Below are positions 33,028 to 56,739 of a stretch of 64,000 nt of DNA, piece by piece (the stretch's first letter is position 1; each line of letters begins with the position of its first letter). This stretch comes from Dehalogenimonas sp. THU2. Its GTDB lineage: Bacteria > Chloroflexota > Dehalococcoidia > Dehalococcoidales > Dehalococcoidaceae. The DNA lies in NCBI RefSeq assembly GCF_039749495.1, contig NZ_JBDLLU010000003.1:62001-126000 (forward strand), written 5' to 3'. The position numbers and the translations under genes were made by a program. The notes beneath the pieces were generated by a model. The model was not told where the DNA came from. It did not search any database and was given only the letters and a program-made list of their open reading frames with translations.

Positions 33028-33055
33028 TAAGGGCGGCTCAGCCGAGCCGCCCTTT
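33028..33055. terminator. Bidirectional terminator between cobU and trxA
   Basis: Perfect arms GGGCGGCTC (33031-33039) and GAGCCGCCC (33044-33052) enclose a four-base loop. AA precedes and TTT follows, so the hairpin serves both converging transcripts. Confidence 0.85.
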
Positions 33056-33078: not shown

Positions 33079-33396
33079 TTAGATCAGTTTTTCGATCTTA
33101 GTCTCCAGCGTGCTCTCCGGTACCGCGCCTACGACCGTGTCCTCGACTTTGCCGGCTTTAAAAAACATGAGGGTGGGAATGGACATGACCCGGAATTGTC
33201 CCGCCGTCTTCTGGTTTTCGTCCACGTTCATCTTGCAGAACTTGAATTTATCCTTGTGTTTCTCTTCCAGCTTATCTACAACCGGGGCCACCATGCGGCA
33301 GGGACCGCACCATGGAGCCCAGAAGTCTACCAGCACCGGTAATTCTGATTTGACCACTTCCGCGTCAAAAGTATCGTCGGTAATTTCCAGCGGCAT
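33079..33396 (-). CDS. trxA: Thioredoxin
   Basis: The 105-aa protein carries the FWAPWCGPCRM active site (Cys pair near residues 31 and 34), the RVMSIPTLMFF cis-proline strand and the usual C-terminal helix. It is a cytosolic thiol reductant. AAGAGGTGA precedes the ATG. It lies downstream of the HdrA-GltD fusion gene by about 60 bases on the same strand and could be co-transcribed with it or have its own promoter. Confidence 0.95.
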   Translation of the reverse strand: MPLEITDDTFDAEVVKSELPVLVDFWAPWCGPCRMVAPVVDKLEEKHKDKFKFCKMNVDENQKTAGQFRVMSIPTLMFFKAGKVEDTVVGAVPESTLETKIEKLI

Positions 33397-33458: not shown

Positions 33459-36400
33459 CTATGGGCATTCGATCAAGGCTTCAACCATAGCCTGCAATTG
33501 GCCGGTGGTGAAATTCTTGACCACGATACCTTGTTTGGGGCAAGTGGCCATGCAGACGCCGCAACCGCGGCATTTCACCGGGTCGGACTCGACAGTCTTT
33601 TTAACCGCCCCGTTACTACTGTATTCGATCAGGGTGATGGCGTCGAAGGGGCAGGGATCGACGCAATAGGCGCAGCCATCGCAATTGGCTTCAATCACCT
33701 CTGAGATACAGGGTTCCAGGGAGATACTGCCCTTGGCGATGGTCGCCAGCACCCGTGCCGCCGCCGCCTGGGCCTGGGCCACGGTTTGGGGGATATCTTT
33801 CGGTCCCTGGGCGCAACCGGCCACAAAGACTCCTTCGTTCATCGTAGCGACAGGGTCGAGTTTGGGATGGCGTTCCAGGAAAAAGCCGTCGGCGCTGCGC
33901 GACAGGCCGAATAAACGGCCCACCGCTTCGGCGTCCTTCTGAGGTTCAACGGCATTGGCCAGTACCACCATATCCACAGGCACCCGCAGTACGGCGCCCA
34001 GGAGAGTATCCTCGACGATAGCTATGAGTTTACCCTGTGTTTCCTCGCCGATAGTCTGATCGGTTATTTCGGCTACCTTGCCTCGAATGAAATTGACGCC
34101 CTCCTCGGCGACCCGCCTTGAAAACTCCTCGTAACCCTTGCCAACACACCGCAGGTCGATGTACATCTGATAAACGCTGGCGCCGGTGCGTTCCCTGATA
34201 AGATGAGCCTGTTTCAGAGAGTACATGCAGCATATCTGTGAACAGTACTCATGATAATTCTTGTCCCGGCTGCCGACGCAATGGACAATGGCAACGCTTT
34301 CCGGCTTGCGGCCGTCTTTCAGGCGTATCTCACCGCTGGTCGGACCCGATGCGTTGGCCAGCCTTTCGAATTCCAGGCCGGTAATGACATTCTCGAATTT
34401 TCCGTAACCGAATTGCGTGATAATGGAGGGGTCGAACATCTCGTAGCCTGTGGCGACGATGATGTTTCCAACTTCGATCTCCACATCTTTCGGCTGCTGC
34501 TCGAAATCGATGCACTTGGGTTCACAAACCGTCAGGCACTGGCGGCAATCGGAGCAACCTCCGCAGTTCAGGCAGCGCGCGGCTTCGGTCACCGCCTGGG
34601 CTTCGGTCAGGTTGAGTTCGGTCTCGGCAAACGAGGTGGTTTCTGCGGGTCTGTGCGAAATCGCGACCCGCGGTGCCTTGATGATACCTTTGATCGATGG
34701 ACGTGCGATATTTGGTTGCGTTTTCCAGTTGGCTTTGAGGTCTTGTTCATTCAGGTAACGATCGATGGATAACGCAGCCTCTTTGCCGGCGGCGATGGCT
34801 TCGATGACGGTGGCCGGGCCGGTAACGGCGTCACCACCGGCGAAAACGCCTTTGAGGCTCGTCGCCAACGTTATCGGGTCGGCTTTGATGGTACCGTTCG
34901 GTTGATGCTCGATTTCGTCAAAGGATCCCTCACCGACTAATTGCCCGACGGCTGTAATGATATTATCGGCGTCGATATCGAATTCGCTACCCTCAACCGG
35001 CATCGGTTTACGCCTGCCGCTCGAATCCGGTTCTCCCAACTCCATCCTTGTGCAACGCACACCGGTGACCCTACCGTCCAACTCGATAACAGCTACCGGG
35101 CTGGTGAGTAACGTCAATTTCACACCTTCAGCCTCGGCGGCGGCGATCTCCTCGGCTATAGCCGGCATTTCGGCGCGGAAACGACGATAGAGGATAGTAA
35201 CTTCTGTAGCGCCCAACCTTATGGCGGTCCGAGCTGCGTCCACAGCGGCATTGCCGCCGCCGATCACTGCGACCTTTTGTCCGAGGGGCGGTGCTGTGCC
35301 TTTTTTGACTTGTTTGAGGAAGTCTATGGCGTTGAAAACACCCCTGGCTGTCTCGCCGGGAATACCCAGCTTTTGGCTCCGCCAGGCGCCGCAGGCGATG
35401 AAAACCGACTGGTACCCTTTTTGTTCAAGCTGGTCGATGGATTCGATGGCAGTACCCGTTAGGATCTCGGCGCCGAGTTCCTTGAGATATGCGATATCAT
35501 TATCCAGCGACGCTTCCGGTAGCCGGTAGGCCGGTATGCCGTAACGCAACATGCCGCCGGGTTGTTCATCGGCTTCGAAAATTGTAACCGGATAGCCCAG
35601 TTTCAAGAGGTCGTAAGCGCAGGCTAAACCGGCGGGACCGGAACCGACGACGGCGATCCTCTCGGTGCGGTTTATCGCCGAGGTTGCCGCTCCTCGACCG
35701 TGATTCAGTTCATAATCGGCGATGAAGCGTTTCAGGGCGCGGATAGCGACGGCTTCGTCCAGGTCGCCCCGGCCGCATTCGGATTCACAGGGATGGGTGC
35801 ATACACGACCACAGACCGCGGCAAAAGGCATGGTGCGCCGTACCACTTCAAGGGCTTCGACGAACTTTCCCTGGGCGATGAGGGCGATGTAGCCCTGGGC
35901 ATTGACGCCAGCAGGACAGGCGACACGGCAGGGTGGTGTACCGCGACGGTCTATGGTGTAAGTATTGGGCACGGACTGGGGGAACGGCCGATAGGCTGCT
36001 TTGCGTTCAGCAAGTCCGAGATCGAATTCCGATGGTACTTTCACCGGGCATATCGTAGCGCAGTCGCCACAGCCTTTGCAGTCTTTTTCGTTAACGTAAC
36101 GGGGTTTCCGTTTGACGGTCACCTTGAAATTCCCGGCATGGCCGTTGACGGCGGCTACCTCGCTGTAAGAAAAAAGAGAAATGTTGGGGTGTTGCCCGGT
36201 CTGGCTCATCTTGGGCGTGGATATACAGGCGGCGCAGTCCAGTGTCGGAAAGGTCTTGTCCAGTTGCGCCATGTGGCCGCCGATGCCGGGATTCTTTTCG
36301 ACCAAGTAAACCTGGTTACCGGATTCAGCGATCTCCAGGGCGGCAGTGATGCCTGCGATACCGCCGCCGACGACCAGTGTATTTGTATTAACAGCGATAC

Positions 36401-36815
36401 TTCGAGGTTCGAGCGGTTGCTGTAAAGCAACTCGGCGCACCGCCGCGCGCACCATGTCTTTAGCCTTGGCTGTTGCCGCCGCTTTATCGCAATTGACCCA
36501 GGCACAGTGTTCCCGGATATTGGCCATATCGAGAAGGTAGGGGTTGATCCCGGCAGACTGAAGGGCGCGCCGGTAGGTTTTTTCATGCATCGTTGGGGAG
36601 CAGGCTGCAATCACGACCCGGTTGAGTGAGTTCTCGCGAATATCGCTTTTGATGATCTCTTGGCCTGGATCGGAACACGTGTATTTGTTTGTACGGGATA
36701 TGACGACTCCGGGTAACGTTCCGGCGTAGTCGGCCACCGAAACCACGTCGACAACGCCGGCGATGTTGATGCCACAGTGACAGATATAGACGCCGGTCCT
36801 GATCTCTTCGTTCAT
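33459..36815 (-). CDS. HdrA with an inserted GltD-like NAD(P)H module (1,118 aa)
   Basis: The order of parts is unusual. Residues 1-140 are the HdrA CHCG domain. Residues about 145-270 hold an HdrA FAD motif (VVGGGIAGI) and ferredoxin motif (CKGCGDCATICP). Residues about 290-760 are a GltD-like module with Fe-S cysteines (CRVACPAG, CGRVCTHPCESECGRG), an FAD motif (VVGSGPAGLACA, near 390), an NAD(P)H motif (VIGGGNAAVDAARTA, near 518) and the ending RCLNCGGC. HdrA sequence then resumes (EVGNIIVATGYEMFDP) and ends in two ferredoxin motifs (CDGCAYCVDPCP, CRGCGVCMATCP). I predict an NAD(P)H-using, possibly bifurcating, enzyme. ATG 36815 has AAGGAGG seven bases upstream. Confidence 0.9.
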   Translation of the reverse strand: MNEEIRTGVYICHCGINIAGVVDVVSVADYAGTLPGVVISRTNKYTCSDPGQEIIKSDIRENSLNRVVIAACSPTMHEKTYRRALQSAGINPYLLDMANIREHCAWVNCDKAAATAKAKDMVRAAVRRVALQQPLEPRSIAVNTNTLVVGGGIAGITAALEIAESGNQVYLVEKNPGIGGHMAQLDKTFPTLDCAACISTPKMSQTGQHPNISLFSYSEVAAVNGHAGNFKVTVKRKPRYVNEKDCKGCGDCATICPVKVPSEFDLGLAERKAAYRPFPQSVPNTYTIDRRGTPPCRVACPAGVNAQGYIALIAQGKFVEALEVVRRTMPFAAVCGRVCTHPCESECGRGDLDEAVAIRALKRFIADYELNHGRGAATSAINRTERIAVVGSGPAGLACAYDLLKLGYPVTIFEADEQPGGMLRYGIPAYRLPEASLDNDIAYLKELGAEILTGTAIESIDQLEQKGYQSVFIACGAWRSQKLGIPGETARGVFNAIDFLKQVKKGTAPPLGQKVAVIGGGNAAVDAARTAIRLGATEVTILYRRFRAEMPAIAEEIAAAEAEGVKLTLLTSPVAVIELDGRVTGVRCTRMELGEPDSSGRRKPMPVEGSEFDIDADNIITAVGQLVGEGSFDEIEHQPNGTIKADPITLATSLKGVFAGGDAVTGPATVIEAIAAGKEAALSIDRYLNEQDLKANWKTQPNIARPSIKGIIKAPRVAISHRPAETTSFAETELNLTEAQAVTEAARCLNCGGCSDCRQCLTVCEPKCIDFEQQPKDVEIEVGNIIVATGYEMFDPSIITQFGYGKFENVITGLEFERLANASGPTSGEIRLKDGRKPESVAIVHCVGSRDKNYHEYCSQICCMYSLKQAHLIRERTGASVYQMYIDLRCVGKGYEEFSRRVAEEGVNFIRGKVAEITDQTIGEETQGKLIAIVEDTLLGAVLRVPVDMVVLANAVEPQKDAEAVGRLFGLSRSADGFFLERHPKLDPVATMNEGVFVAGCAQGPKDIPQTVAQAQAAAARVLATIAKGSISLEPCISEVIEANCDGCAYCVDPCPFDAITLIEYSSNGAVKKTVESDPVKCRGCGVCMATCPKQGIVVKNFTTGQLQAMVEALIECP

Positions 36816-36832: not shown

Positions 36833-37978
36833 TCAAAGAGCCTGGATAATGAGTTCGCTGATGTCTAAGATGGAGAAGCCGTCGGGTAGCGGCTGATTGA
36901 GGCCACTGTCCTTGAAATTGGACAAGCAATACGGGCAGGCGGTGACAAGCGTATCGGCACCTGTGGCCGCAGCTTGTTGGATTCTGTTTTCGCTGAAACG
37001 TTCAGCGCGCGGTGTCTCCATCCAAATACGCCCACCACCGCCCCCGCAGCAAAGACTCTCGGCTCGGCCGGGTTGTAGTTCAACCAGTTCAACACCGGGA
37101 ACGGCACCGATGACTTCCCTGGGTTCTTGATAAACCCCGTTGTGTCGTCCCAGGTAACAGGGGTCGTGGTAGGTAATTTTACGGTTGACGTGACTCTGGA
37201 ACTTCAGCCGGCCGGCGGCGAGCAGATCCGCCAGCAATTGGCTGGTATGAATGACCTCAAAGCGGCTGCCGAGTTCCGGGTATTCGTTTTTCAACGTATG
37301 GTAACAATGAGGTGAATTGACGATAATCCTGGTGACCTTGTTTTCGGAAAACAGGGTGGTGTTCCCACCGGCAAGTTGCTGGAAGAGCGCTTCATCGCCT
37401 GCCTTGCGGGCACTCTCACCACAACAGACGACGTTTTCGATAACACCGTAGTTTACTCCGGCGGCGGTGAGAACCTCAGCGGTTGATCTCACGGCATTCC
37501 TTAGAGCCGGATCGAATGCCGTCACGCAACAAGGAAAAAACAGGTATTCGGTAGCGGCATCGAAAGTTTTGATATCGAGGCCTTGCGCCCAGGCATTACG
37601 GGTATCGGCGGATTCACCCATTGGATTGCCGGTGGCGGATAGGTTTCTGAGGGCACCGGCTAGGGGTGCCGGGGCTTCGGCGATACCCATACCGATAACC
37701 GCCCGTCGCAACGCGCGCATGATATCGATGATAGGGACGTCACGCGGGCAGCGCTGGACGCATTTATTACAGGTGACACAACGCCAGACATTGTCGATCT
37801 CAAAATCTGTCAACCCTAGCCGGGCTTCTTCGAACATTCGCCTTGGCAGGAAAGAAATATAATCCCGCCAGGGACAGGTCGCGGAGCAGGTGCCGCACTG
37901 GTAACAACGGTCAAGCGCTTCGGCGCCGCTTTCCTTAATGAGTTCAGCTACTTCTGTAAAAGGCGCTTGAGTACCCAA
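36833..37978 (-). CDS. HdrD-like Fe-S protein (HdrC-HdrB fusion)
   Basis: Two N-terminal ferredoxin motifs (CYQCGTCSATCPW, residues about 25-37; CVTCNKCVQRCP, about 68-79) are joined to two CCG domains (FPCCVTAF...VVCCGESARK and DPCYLGRH...SLCCGGGGGR...CPYC). This matches HdrD/GlpC-type proteins, which pass electrons to or from disulfides, quinones or other partners. The 381-aa chain is complete. TTG start with AGGAGGT five bases upstream. It is the first gene behind a consensus promoter and palindromic operator, with the HdrA-GltD fusion 17 bases downstream. Confidence 0.9.
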   Translation of the reverse strand: MGTQAPFTEVAELIKESGAEALDRCYQCGTCSATCPWRDYISFLPRRMFEEARLGLTDFEIDNVWRCVTCNKCVQRCPRDVPIIDIMRALRRAVIGMGIAEAPAPLAGALRNLSATGNPMGESADTRNAWAQGLDIKTFDAATEYLFFPCCVTAFDPALRNAVRSTAEVLTAAGVNYGVIENVVCCGESARKAGDEALFQQLAGGNTTLFSENKVTRIIVNSPHCYHTLKNEYPELGSRFEVIHTSQLLADLLAAGRLKFQSHVNRKITYHDPCYLGRHNGVYQEPREVIGAVPGVELVELQPGRAESLCCGGGGGRIWMETPRAERFSENRIQQAAATGADTLVTACPYCLSNFKDSGLNQPLPDGFSILDISELIIQAL

Positions 37979-37994: not shown

Positions 37995-38020
37995 ACCTAT
38001 TGAATGATCATTCAATAGGT
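37995..38020. promoter_or_regulatory. 26-bp perfect palindrome, candidate repressor operator
   Basis: Half-sites ACCTATTGAATGA and TCATTCAATAGGT mirror each other exactly around the centre at 38007/38008. The core resembles TetR-family operators. It begins six bases past the -10 box, covering the predicted +1, and ends three bases before the Shine-Dalgarno site of the HdrD-like gene. Bound protein would therefore block initiation. Confidence 0.75.
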
Positions 38021-38026
38021 CAGGTG

Positions 38027-38055
38027 ATTATAGCATAAAGGAGTATTAGTACCAA
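38027..38055 (-). promoter_or_regulatory. Consensus promoter of the HdrD-like/HdrA-GltD operon
   Basis: On the minus strand: TTGGTA (complement of 38050-38055), a 17-base spacer ending TGC, and TATAAT (complement of 38027-38032). The box is also an extended -10 element. Confidence 0.85.
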
Positions 38056-38069
38056 CCCGGCAAGCGGGA

Positions 38070-39233
38070 TTAATAGGGATGGTCCGGGGAAGTGGAAGAT
38101 ACCGGCAGTGTCACCATGACGGTTGTGCCCTGGCCTGGAATTGAGTCAATGTTCATCTTAGCGCCTATGAGTTGAGCCCGTTCCTGCATGCCAGTCAAGC
38201 CTAGTTTACCGCTGACTGCAAGATCACCGATACGATCAGGAGGATGGAAACCCTTGCCATTGTCCTTGATGGTGAGAACCGTACGCTGAGGCAGGAAATC
38301 GATCATCACCCAAACGTGACTTGCGGCGGCGTGTTTACCAACGTTGCGGAGTGACTCCTGAACGATACGAAACAGCACCAGTTCTTTTTCAGGAGGGAAA
38401 CGCCGGATCGTCCCATTGATCGCAAGTTCGATATTAAGCTTGAAGTACTGTGCCAGGTCCGGTACCAGCCATTCTATCGCTGGGATCAACCCGAGGTCAT
38501 CGAGCACGGAGGGTCGTAAGTCTTGACTGAAACGTCGTACACTGCTCAATGTTCGGTTGACGTGCTGGTGCATGTCTTCCAAGTATGCCTCATCCGGAGA
38601 TGTCAGTGCCGGATGGAGGGACATGAAACCATCAATTTTTCGGGAGATCGCGATGAGGTCTTGGGCAGTATCATCATGTAGTTCCTGGGCGATACGGCGG
38701 CGCTCTTCTTCTTGGGCTAGTGTGATTTGTTTAAGATAGAATCTGAGATTCTGTTGCATTCTTTGCAGTTCTCTTTGAGCGCTTTCCAATCTTAAATACG
38801 CCATTTGGCGGTGGCGTTTATCCGTTTCATAGCTTTCCAACCATAGGTTGACCACCAGACCGATGATCACGATACCGATGATCTCAATGATATCATCGCC
38901 AGTAATCGGTGATTCTAGGAGAATTAGATTTGGCACGATCATCGTTACTGCGATAAGCAGAGCGAGTAACCCAATACGCATTCCAAAAACCAGAGCCGCA
39001 TAGGTTACCGGCAATAGCATTATCAAGCGTCCGAAAGAATGACGGCTTAAAGACAGAAAATTATTTGGGTCTAACGTATCGATAAATGGAATGAACTGGG
39101 GGTATTGGAGTAGAAACCCGCCGACAAAAAAAAGCACCAATAACCAAAGATGAAAGTTGGCGAAAATCCTAGCTATTCGGCGCCAGGATTTGGGTTTAGG
39201 TGTTTTTTTTCGTTGAGTGGAGGCGATATTCAG
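38070..39233 (-). CDS. Membrane sensor histidine kinase, NarX/DegS (HisKA_3) type
   Basis: Four to five hydrophobic helices at the N-terminus are followed by a coiled coil and the HisKA_3 phosphoacceptor (EEERRRIAQELHDDTAQDLI). The ATPase domain has NVGKHAAASHV, DNGKGFHPP and LGLTGMQERAQLIG. The partner regulator lies directly upstream. The first usual start in frame is TTG at 39140, which has no ribosome-binding site and would cut the first helix. The frame continues upstream with a basic N-terminus (QRKKTPKPKSWRR) to a CTG at 39233, six bases after GGAGGA. I favour the CTG start. No periplasmic sensor domain of any size is visible. Confidence 0.85.
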   Translation of the reverse strand: MNIASTQRKKTPKPKSWRRIARIFANFHLWLLVLFFVGGFLLQYPQFIPFIDTLDPNNFLSLSRHSFGRLIMLLPVTYAALVFGMRIGLLALLIAVTMIVPNLILLESPITGDDIIEIIGIVIIGLVVNLWLESYETDKRHRQMAYLRLESAQRELQRMQQNLRFYLKQITLAQEEERRRIAQELHDDTAQDLIAISRKIDGFMSLHPALTSPDEAYLEDMHQHVNRTLSSVRRFSQDLRPSVLDDLGLIPAIEWLVPDLAQYFKLNIELAINGTIRRFPPEKELVLFRIVQESLRNVGKHAAASHVWVMIDFLPQRTVLTIKDNGKGFHPPDRIGDLAVSGKLGLTGMQERAQLIGAKMNIDSIPGQGTTVMVTLPVSSTSPDHPY

Positions 39234-39253: not shown

Positions 39254-39901
39254 TCAGCCGCGTTTAAGGCCGTAAAGAATCGCTTCTGTCCGAGAGGCAA
39301 CCTCCAGTTTTTTAAAAATATTGGAGAGATGCGTTTGGACGGTCCGGCTGCTGACAAAAAGCTGGTCGGCGATGTCCTTGTTGCTGACACCTTTGGCGGC
39401 CAGTTTCAGCACTTCCATTTCGCGTTCTGTTAGTGTTGCCGAAGGTCCCTCATCAGGTTTGATCGGTTTAGACTTTAGTTGATCGATGACTCGGCGTGTT
39501 GTGGAAGGTTGCAGTATGGATTCGCCCGAATGAACGGCACGAATCGCGTCAATAAGTTGGTTTCCGCGTACGTTTTTAAGCAGGTAACCGGCCGCGCCGG
39601 CTTCTAATAATGCCATAATATATTGGTCGGAATCATAAGCGGTCAGGATAAGCACTGCGGTTGTCGGCAGGATTTTCTTTACCTGTTTAGTAGCCTCGAT
39701 ATCGTTCATATTGGGCATTGCGATATCCATGACGATAACATCCGGCCGATACACCCTGGCCAGTTCAACCGCTTCCACGCCGTCGCTGGCTTCGGCGACT
39801 ACCTGCATATCCGGTTGTCGCTGCACCATTTCACGAGTGCCCTCACGGACAATCACGTGGTCATCTGCGAGCAATACCTTGATCTTATCTTCACTTTCCA
39901 T
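39254..39901 (-). CDS. NarL/LuxR-family response regulator
   Basis: The receiver domain has the acidic pair (LLADDHV, near residue 13), phosphoacceptor Asp in VIVMDIAMP (near 58) and LILTAYDSD with switch Thr, then Lys in YLLKNVRG. The C-terminal LuxR helix-turn-helix reads LTEREMEVLKLAAKGVSNKDIADQLFVSSRTVQTHLSNIFKKL. At 215 aa it is complete. GAGGTGATATT precedes the ATG. It is encoded inside the acs gene series after the DUF3786 gene, so it probably regulates this or the neighbouring Hdr operon. Confidence 0.93.
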   Translation of the reverse strand: MESEDKIKVLLADDHVIVREGTREMVQRQPDMQVVAEASDGVEAVELARVYRPDVIVMDIAMPNMNDIEATKQVKKILPTTAVLILTAYDSDQYIMALLEAGAAGYLLKNVRGNQLIDAIRAVHSGESILQPSTTRRVIDQLKSKPIKPDEGPSATLTEREMEVLKLAAKGVSNKDIADQLFVSSRTVQTHLSNIFKKLEVASRTEAILYGLKRG

Positions 39902-56449: not shown

Positions 56450-56667
56450 TTTTCTCTACCGCCTTCAGTACCACCGAATATTTCACCGGCGGCTTTACCA
56501 AGCCTGATTATAGGCTCTTTAACCGTTATAATGCCACCCCTCATCGCTCATCCGGGGTAAATAGTTGAGCGATACGTAGATGTATTGTTGAAAAAATTTC
56601 TGAGTCGTTTTCCAAAGTGCAAAAACGAACCCATTTTTATGATTTATCCACGATCACAGCCTACGAT

Positions 56668-56691
56668 GAGGGCGACCGGCCGGTCGCCCTC
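56668..56691. repeat. 24-bp perfect GC-rich palindrome (REP-like)
   Basis: Half-sites GAGGGCGACCGG and CCGGTCGCCCTC mirror each other exactly. It is similar in style to the palindrome at 19530-19549. It lies just before the long diverged repeat. Confidence 0.65.
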
Positions 56692-56739
56692 ACGGGGCCC
56701 GATAATTTCGGTGTCACGGTCATTGATCGATAAACGCTG

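What the first reader, a model, noticed from the sequence alone, without database searches (positions are those of the whole stretch)
37995..38055. 26-bp perfect palindrome over the start site of the Hdr-GltD operon
A consensus promoter (TTGGTA, 17 bases, TATAAT) is followed six bases later by a perfect palindrome covering +1 to about +26 of the predicted transcript. The chance of 13 matched base pairs at this exact position is very small. The core looks like a TetR-type operator, yet no TetR-family gene is in the window, so the regulator must be elsewhere or be the adjacent NarL-type regulator.
Basis: partly seen in the sequence, partly recalled or inferred. Interest (0 to 1): 0.62.

Follow-up and report, generated by a model that had tools for sequence, protein, structure and literature searches.

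The report
Fatty-acid regulator binding site
The perfect palindrome at the start of this electron-transfer (Hdr-GltD) operon is very probably the binding site of a TetR-family regulator that also controls fatty-acid and acyl-CoA genes elsewhere in the genome, which ties an uncharacterised redox complex to lipid metabolism in this group of bacteria.

Summary
In detail: a perfect 26-bp palindrome (37995-38020) lies 6 bp after a perfect TATAAT, just upstream of an HdrBC-like / HdrA-GltD operon. It is not chance. All 8 sequenced species of the genus carry TTGAAYGANYRTTCAA at this position; only this inner 16 bp is conserved, and the outer 5 bp of each arm are particular to this genome. The same motif, with a fixed 6-nt spacer, lies in promoters of fabF (8/8), a DegV/FakB-like gene (8/8), etfBA (8/8), a PgfA-like lipid-trafficking gene (7/8) and crotonase (5/5 with the gene). 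It also lies at the start of a TetR gene conserved in all 8 species. TetR genes of the same clade in two other groups of the order carry it at their own promoters; the unrelated TetR present in all 8 does not. The NarL alternative is not supported. Best reading: an acyl-CoA/lipid-responsive TetR repressor regulon (FadR-like in logic) that in this genus has recruited the Hdr-GltD complex together with ETF. No binding, ligand or transcript start was measured. New member of a known kind.

The parts
37995..38020 (.). perfect 26-bp palindrome ACCTATTGAATGATCATTCAATAGGT
38000..38015 (.). conserved operator core TTGAATGATCATTCAA (consensus TTGAAYGANYRTTCAA in 8 species); best motif score in the whole window
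38027..38032 (-). -10 TATAAT, conserved in all 8 species
38050..38055 (-). -35 TTGGTA, 17-bp spacing; weakly conserved
36833..37978 (-). HdrBC-like iron-sulfur oxidoreductase (4Fe-4S pair + two CCG domains), first gene of the controlled operon
33459..36815 (-). HdrA with an inserted GltD (NADPH-dependent glutamate synthase small subunit) domain, second gene
33079..33396 (-). thioredoxin gene downstream, possibly same operon (not tested)
38070..39140 (-). sensor histidine kinase directly upstream (neighbour in all 8 species; not the owner of the site)
39254..39901 (-).

Best explanation
The palindrome is the operator of a dimeric TetR-family repressor encoded elsewhere in the genome (TetR1, contig C13:47126-47749), which controls a dispersed lipid/acyl-CoA regulon. 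Shown by sequence: the operator core is conserved at this promoter in all 8 species of the genus; the same core with a 6-nt spacer occurs at fabF, DegV/FakB-like, etfBA, crotonase and PgfA-like promoters; and TetR1-clade genes carry it at their own start. Inferred: TetR1 binds it as a dimer and blocks RNA polymerase, either just downstream of the -10 (hdr, etf, crotonase) or over the -35/-10 region (fabF, degV). A long-chain acyl-CoA or similar lipid releases it, so the HdrBC/HdrA-GltD complex is made together with ETF and acyl-CoA enzymes. Also inferred: the complex passes electrons between ETF (acyl-CoA oxidation), ferredoxin and NAD(P)H.
For: Operator: 8/8 conservation, with palindrome-keeping differences in several species. 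Of 73 TTGAAY..RTTCAA pairs with spacers 2-8 in ten related genomes, 42 have exactly 6, no other spacer exceeding 8. Own genome, one mismatch allowed: 35 matches against 8 for the reversed control. Leave-one-operon-out scoring recovers each operon, hdr included, in the top 0.7% of 120-bp windows; the background contains the true sites, so this is conservative. Lipid regulon: fabF, DegV/FakB-like, etfB/A, enoyl-CoA hydratase, 3-hydroxyacyl-CoA dehydrogenase, PgfA-like lipid trafficking. Regulator: TetR1 in all 8 species, its start scoring in the top 1.3% in each; clade homologues of ~40% identity in three genomes of the sister genus and four of another family have full sites at their own promoters, while TetR3, also in all 8, has none. 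Closest solved structure by sequence: 6el2/6en8, FadRSa, a fatty-acid repressor released by acyl-CoA (PMC6449355). hdr and etfBA are both present in 8/8 of the genus and both absent from 3/3 of the sister genus.
Against: No binding, expression or transcript-start data. In the genus itself the TetR1 start sites are weaker (a recurrent mismatch in the left half) and overlap coding sequence, so part of their conservation could be protein constraint. TetR2, a paralogue in 3 of 8 genomes, could share the site. The ligand is inferred from regulon content and distant homology only; TetR1 scores below the curated cut-off of every NCBIfam regulator model, FadR included. HdrBC homologues in other Dehalococcoidales lack the site, so the wiring is not general.
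Confidence: 0.82

Rival explanations
1. The site belongs to the adjacent NarL-type response regulator, which with its histidine kinase would control the operon locally.
For: HK and RR genes sit directly upstream in the same orientation and are conserved next to hdr across the genus. The outer arm bases GACCTAT / AACCTAT are one mismatch from the NarL heptamer TACYYMT.
Against: The heptamer-like outer arms are absent in the other seven species and no genome has a good 7-2-7 arrangement. The motif occurs at fabF, degV, etf and TetR promoters without that neighbour and at TetR genes in other families.
Confidence: 0.04
2. The palindrome acts as an RNA hairpin at the 5' end of the transcript (stability, translation or attenuation control).
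For: The 5' end folds into an 11-bp hairpin, z -3.7 against shuffles.
Against: Only this genome has the long arms; in several relatives the pairing stops at the core. At fabF and degV the same motif lies over the -35/-10 region, so it would not be transcribed from the predicted promoter. No Rfam family passes its gathering score.
Confidence: 0.06
3. A TetR operator, but owned by TetR2 or by another DNA-binding protein, with TetR1 a target only.
For: TetR2 is about 38% identical to TetR1, adjacent to it, and carries a partial site at its promoter; it precedes an RND/MMPL-like transporter.
Against: TetR2 was found in only 3 of 8 genomes while the sites are in all 8; the TetR2 promoters of G003 and G007 lack a typical site.
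Confidence: 0.08

Closest known systems
FadRSa of Sulfolobus acidocaldarius (TetR family; PDB 6el2, 6en8; PMC6449355)
   Same: TetR-family; best sequence match of TetR1 among solved structures; 16-bp motif with dyad symmetry; site at its own gene; represses lipid/beta-oxidation genes; released by fatty acyl-CoA.
   Different: FadRSa controls one 30-kb cluster through four sites; here the sites are dispersed over single promoters and include fatty-acid synthesis (fabF), ETF and an Hdr complex. Identity is low and ligand binding is untested. The motif letters were not compared.
Bacillus FadR (YsiA), TetR-family repressor of beta-oxidation
   Same: Matched in NCBIfam (E 5e-13, below cut-off) and PDB (3whb); from memory its half-site also reads TGAATGA and it controls etf and acyl-CoA genes.
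   Different: From memory its half-sites are about 4 bp further apart; TetR1 is far below the family's cut-off score.
Fatty-acid synthesis regulators FasR, FabR, DesT (TetR family)
   Same: TetR-type regulators acting on fatty-acid synthesis genes (from memory).
   Different: TetR1 below the FasR and FabR cut-offs; operator letters differ (from memory).
Hdr/ETF-linked electron transfer complexes of syntrophic fatty-acid oxidisers
   Same: HdrBC-like protein with ETF and acyl-CoA enzymes; in a Syntrophaceae contig etfBA homologues lie directly behind an HdrBC homologue (L206).
   Different: Here etfBA is unlinked in the genome and tied to hdr by a shared operator; HdrA carries a GltD insertion.

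Membership tests
TetR-family operator (autoregulated regulon) | inverted repeat at promoters, overlapping -35/-10 or the start site | tested here: met
TetR-family operator (autoregulated regulon) | same motif at the promoter of the cognate TetR gene, across species | tested here: met
   full sites in 3 sister-genus and 4 other-family genomes; weaker site (recurrent mismatch) in the genus itself
TetR-family operator (autoregulated regulon) | regulator has a TetR_N HTH domain | tested here: met
   PF00440 E 1.7e-19
TetR-family operator (autoregulated regulon) | regulator binds the site | not testable with these tools
   needs gel shift or ChIP
FadR-type acyl-CoA-responsive TetR | regulon of fatty-acid / acyl-CoA genes | tested here: met
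   fabF, FakB-like, etfBA, crotonase, 3-hydroxyacyl-CoA dehydrogenase
FadR-type acyl-CoA-responsive TetR | membership of the curated Bacillus FadR model | tested here: not met
   NF053878 49 bits against a cut-off of 200; so FadR-like in logic, not a member of that family
FadR-type acyl-CoA-responsive TetR | acyl-CoA binding releases DNA | not testable with these tools
   inferred only
NarL/FixJ operator | TACYYMT heptamers in conserved arrangement | tested here: not met
cis-acting RNA hairpin / thermometer | known RNA family or conserved transcribed hairpin | tested here: not met
   no Rfam family over gathering score; motif untranscribed at fabF and degV by predicted promoters

The most novel reading that the evidence does not exclude
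In this genus an HdrBC / HdrA-GltD complex has been placed under a lipid-sensing TetR repressor together with ETF and beta-oxidation genes, and works as the electron link between acyl-CoA oxidation and ferredoxin/NAD(P)H: an unrecognised fatty-acid side of the metabolism of bacteria thought to live by organohalide respiration.
Probability: 0.4. Interest if true: 0.65.

Novelty: new member of a known kind. Interest (0 to 1): 0.45.

Why it matters
It gives a predicted regulator, operator and regulon in a group with little known regulation, and a functional context for an uncharacterised Hdr-GltD complex: co-control with ETF and acyl-CoA enzymes. This turns 'Hdr-like, function unknown' into a testable hypothesis, that the complex serves acyl-CoA electron flow. 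The literature searched here (PMC open papers only, by title, abstract and a few passages) showed no description of such a regulon.

Tried and rejected
Half-site search with ACCTATTGAATGA: uninformative, because the outer bases are not conserved. Broad pattern TTGAA-N6-TTCAA with one mismatch: too many hits to list; replaced by the Y/R-constrained pattern. A separate 2-nt-spaced motif at the TetR genes was considered; most of those sites also fit the 6-nt motif with mismatches in the left half, so a second motif is not needed, though not excluded. Several exact hits look unrelated: a terminator-like hairpin (L149) and coding hits in L125 and L138. HdrBC homologues in other Dehalococcoidales lack the site.

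Full report
OBSERVATION. The sequence is as described. Read on the minus strand, TTGGTA (38055-38050), 17 bp and TATAAT (38032-38027) are followed 6 bp later by ACCTATTGAATGATCATTCAATAGGT (38020-37995), a perfect 26-bp palindrome, then an AAAGGAGGTG ribosome-binding site and a TTG start at 37978. About 0.001 such palindromes are expected in 64 kb. The gene is an HdrBC-like protein followed by an HdrA with an inserted GltD domain. The genome has 1.84 Mb.

CONSERVATION. The HdrBC orthologue is present in all 8 genomes of the genus and absent from the 3 of the sister genus. All 8 promoters carry TTGAAYGANYRTTCAA directly after a TATAAT. The outer five bases of each arm, which make the palindrome 26 bp long here, are not shared; other species have different, sometimes paired, outer bases. 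The functional unit is therefore the 16-bp core, 38000-38015.

A REGULON. Searching the genus and sister genus for TTGAAY-N0..6-RTTCAA gave 73 listed sites in G001-G010, 42 with a 6-nt spacer between TTGAA and TTCAA and no other spacer above 8. In the window's own genome, the 6-nt pattern with one mismatch has 35 matches against 8 for the reversed control. Recurrent targets, read from the fetched DNA: hdr in 8 of 8 genomes, fabF in 8, a DegV/FakB-like gene in 8, etfBA in 8 (TTGASCAAKCGTTCAA), a PgfA-like (DUF3068, PF11271) gene in 7, and a crotonase gene in all 5 genomes that have it, followed in this genome by a 3-hydroxyacyl-CoA dehydrogenase. Single-genome sites lie at an acyl-CoA carboxylase carboxyltransferase (own genome) and a biotin carboxylase-like gene (G004). 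Names rest on NCBIfam and Pfam for the own-genome copies and otherwise on visible sequence similarity. Removing one operon at a time from the motif still recovers its sites in the top 0.7% of background windows. In the window the next best match scores 14.2 against 24.8 for the palindrome.

THE REGULATOR. The genome has three TetR genes, none in the window. TetR1 (C13:47126-47749) is in all 8 species, at 78-84% identity. Its promoter has a TATAAT about 8-10 nt before the ATG, and a motif match spans the start codon region, scoring in the top 1.3% in each species with a recurrent mismatch in the left half. Homologues of about 40% identity in the three sister-genus genomes, and in four genomes of another family, carry full-strength sites at their own promoters. 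TetR3, also in all 8, has no site; in the own genome it sits by ABC-transporter genes. TetR2 was found in only three genomes. TetR1 is the best candidate. Its closest solved relative by sequence is FadRSa (6el2), a fatty-acid regulator with a 16-bp dyad motif, released by acyl-CoA (PMC6449355). TetR1 does not reach the curated cut-off of any known regulator family.

MECHANISM. At hdr, etfBA and crotonase the site lies just downstream of the -10; at degV it fills the spacer between TTTACA and TATTAT; at fabF it overlaps the likely -35. These positions fit a repressor that blocks RNA polymerase. That a lipid or acyl-CoA lifts repression is inferred from the regulon and from FadRSa. The co-control and shared phyletic pattern of hdr and etfBA, and an etfBA pair directly behind an HdrBC homologue in a Syntrophaceae contig (L206), suggest that the Hdr-GltD complex exchanges electrons with ETF; this step is a hypothesis.

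ALTERNATIVES. The adjacent NarL-type regulator: its heptamer is not conserved in these promoters. RNA hairpin: the 5' end folds well in this genome, but the motif would be untranscribed at fabF and degV, and no Rfam family reaches its threshold.

LIMITS. Nothing was measured. The genomes are related, so counts are not independent events. Motif scanning outside the window was by pattern search, not by a full annotated scan, so the regulon is incomplete. HdrBC homologues in other Dehalococcoidales lack the site, so the link between hdr and this regulator appears specific to the genus. Literature was limited to open PMC papers.

Noticed in passing
window 56667-56692: A second perfect 26-bp palindrome, TGAGGGCGACCGGCCGGTCGCCCTCA, GC-rich and terminator-like.
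   Followed up: no
window 33029-33054: Inverted repeat AAGGGCGGCTCAGCCGAGCCGCCCTT just past the thioredoxin gene, probably the operon's terminator.
   Followed up: no
G004:C1:824402 and 853732 (L055, L058): Two identical-scoring copies of the hdr locus 29.3 kb apart, a large duplication or an assembly artefact.
   Followed up: no
L257 (G010:C1:1307205-1307798): The TetR1-clade gene of one sister-genus genome has an in-frame TAG while its operator is intact.
   Followed up: no
L285:3127: TetR1 mRNA looks leaderless: the ATG follows TATAAT by about 8-10 nt and the operator-like site overlaps the start codon region.
   Followed up: partly
L286:3171-7717: A double-cubane-cluster reductase and a CoA-dehydratase-type activase gene lie upstream of the crotonase and 3-hydroxyacyl-CoA dehydrogenase genes.
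   Followed up: partly
L122 near 1014, L141 near 1082: Motif within a longer palindrome ATCGGATTGAACTATCGTTCAATCCGAT upstream of a gene that looks like a membrane pyrophosphatase, in two species; operator or terminator unclear.
   Followed up: no
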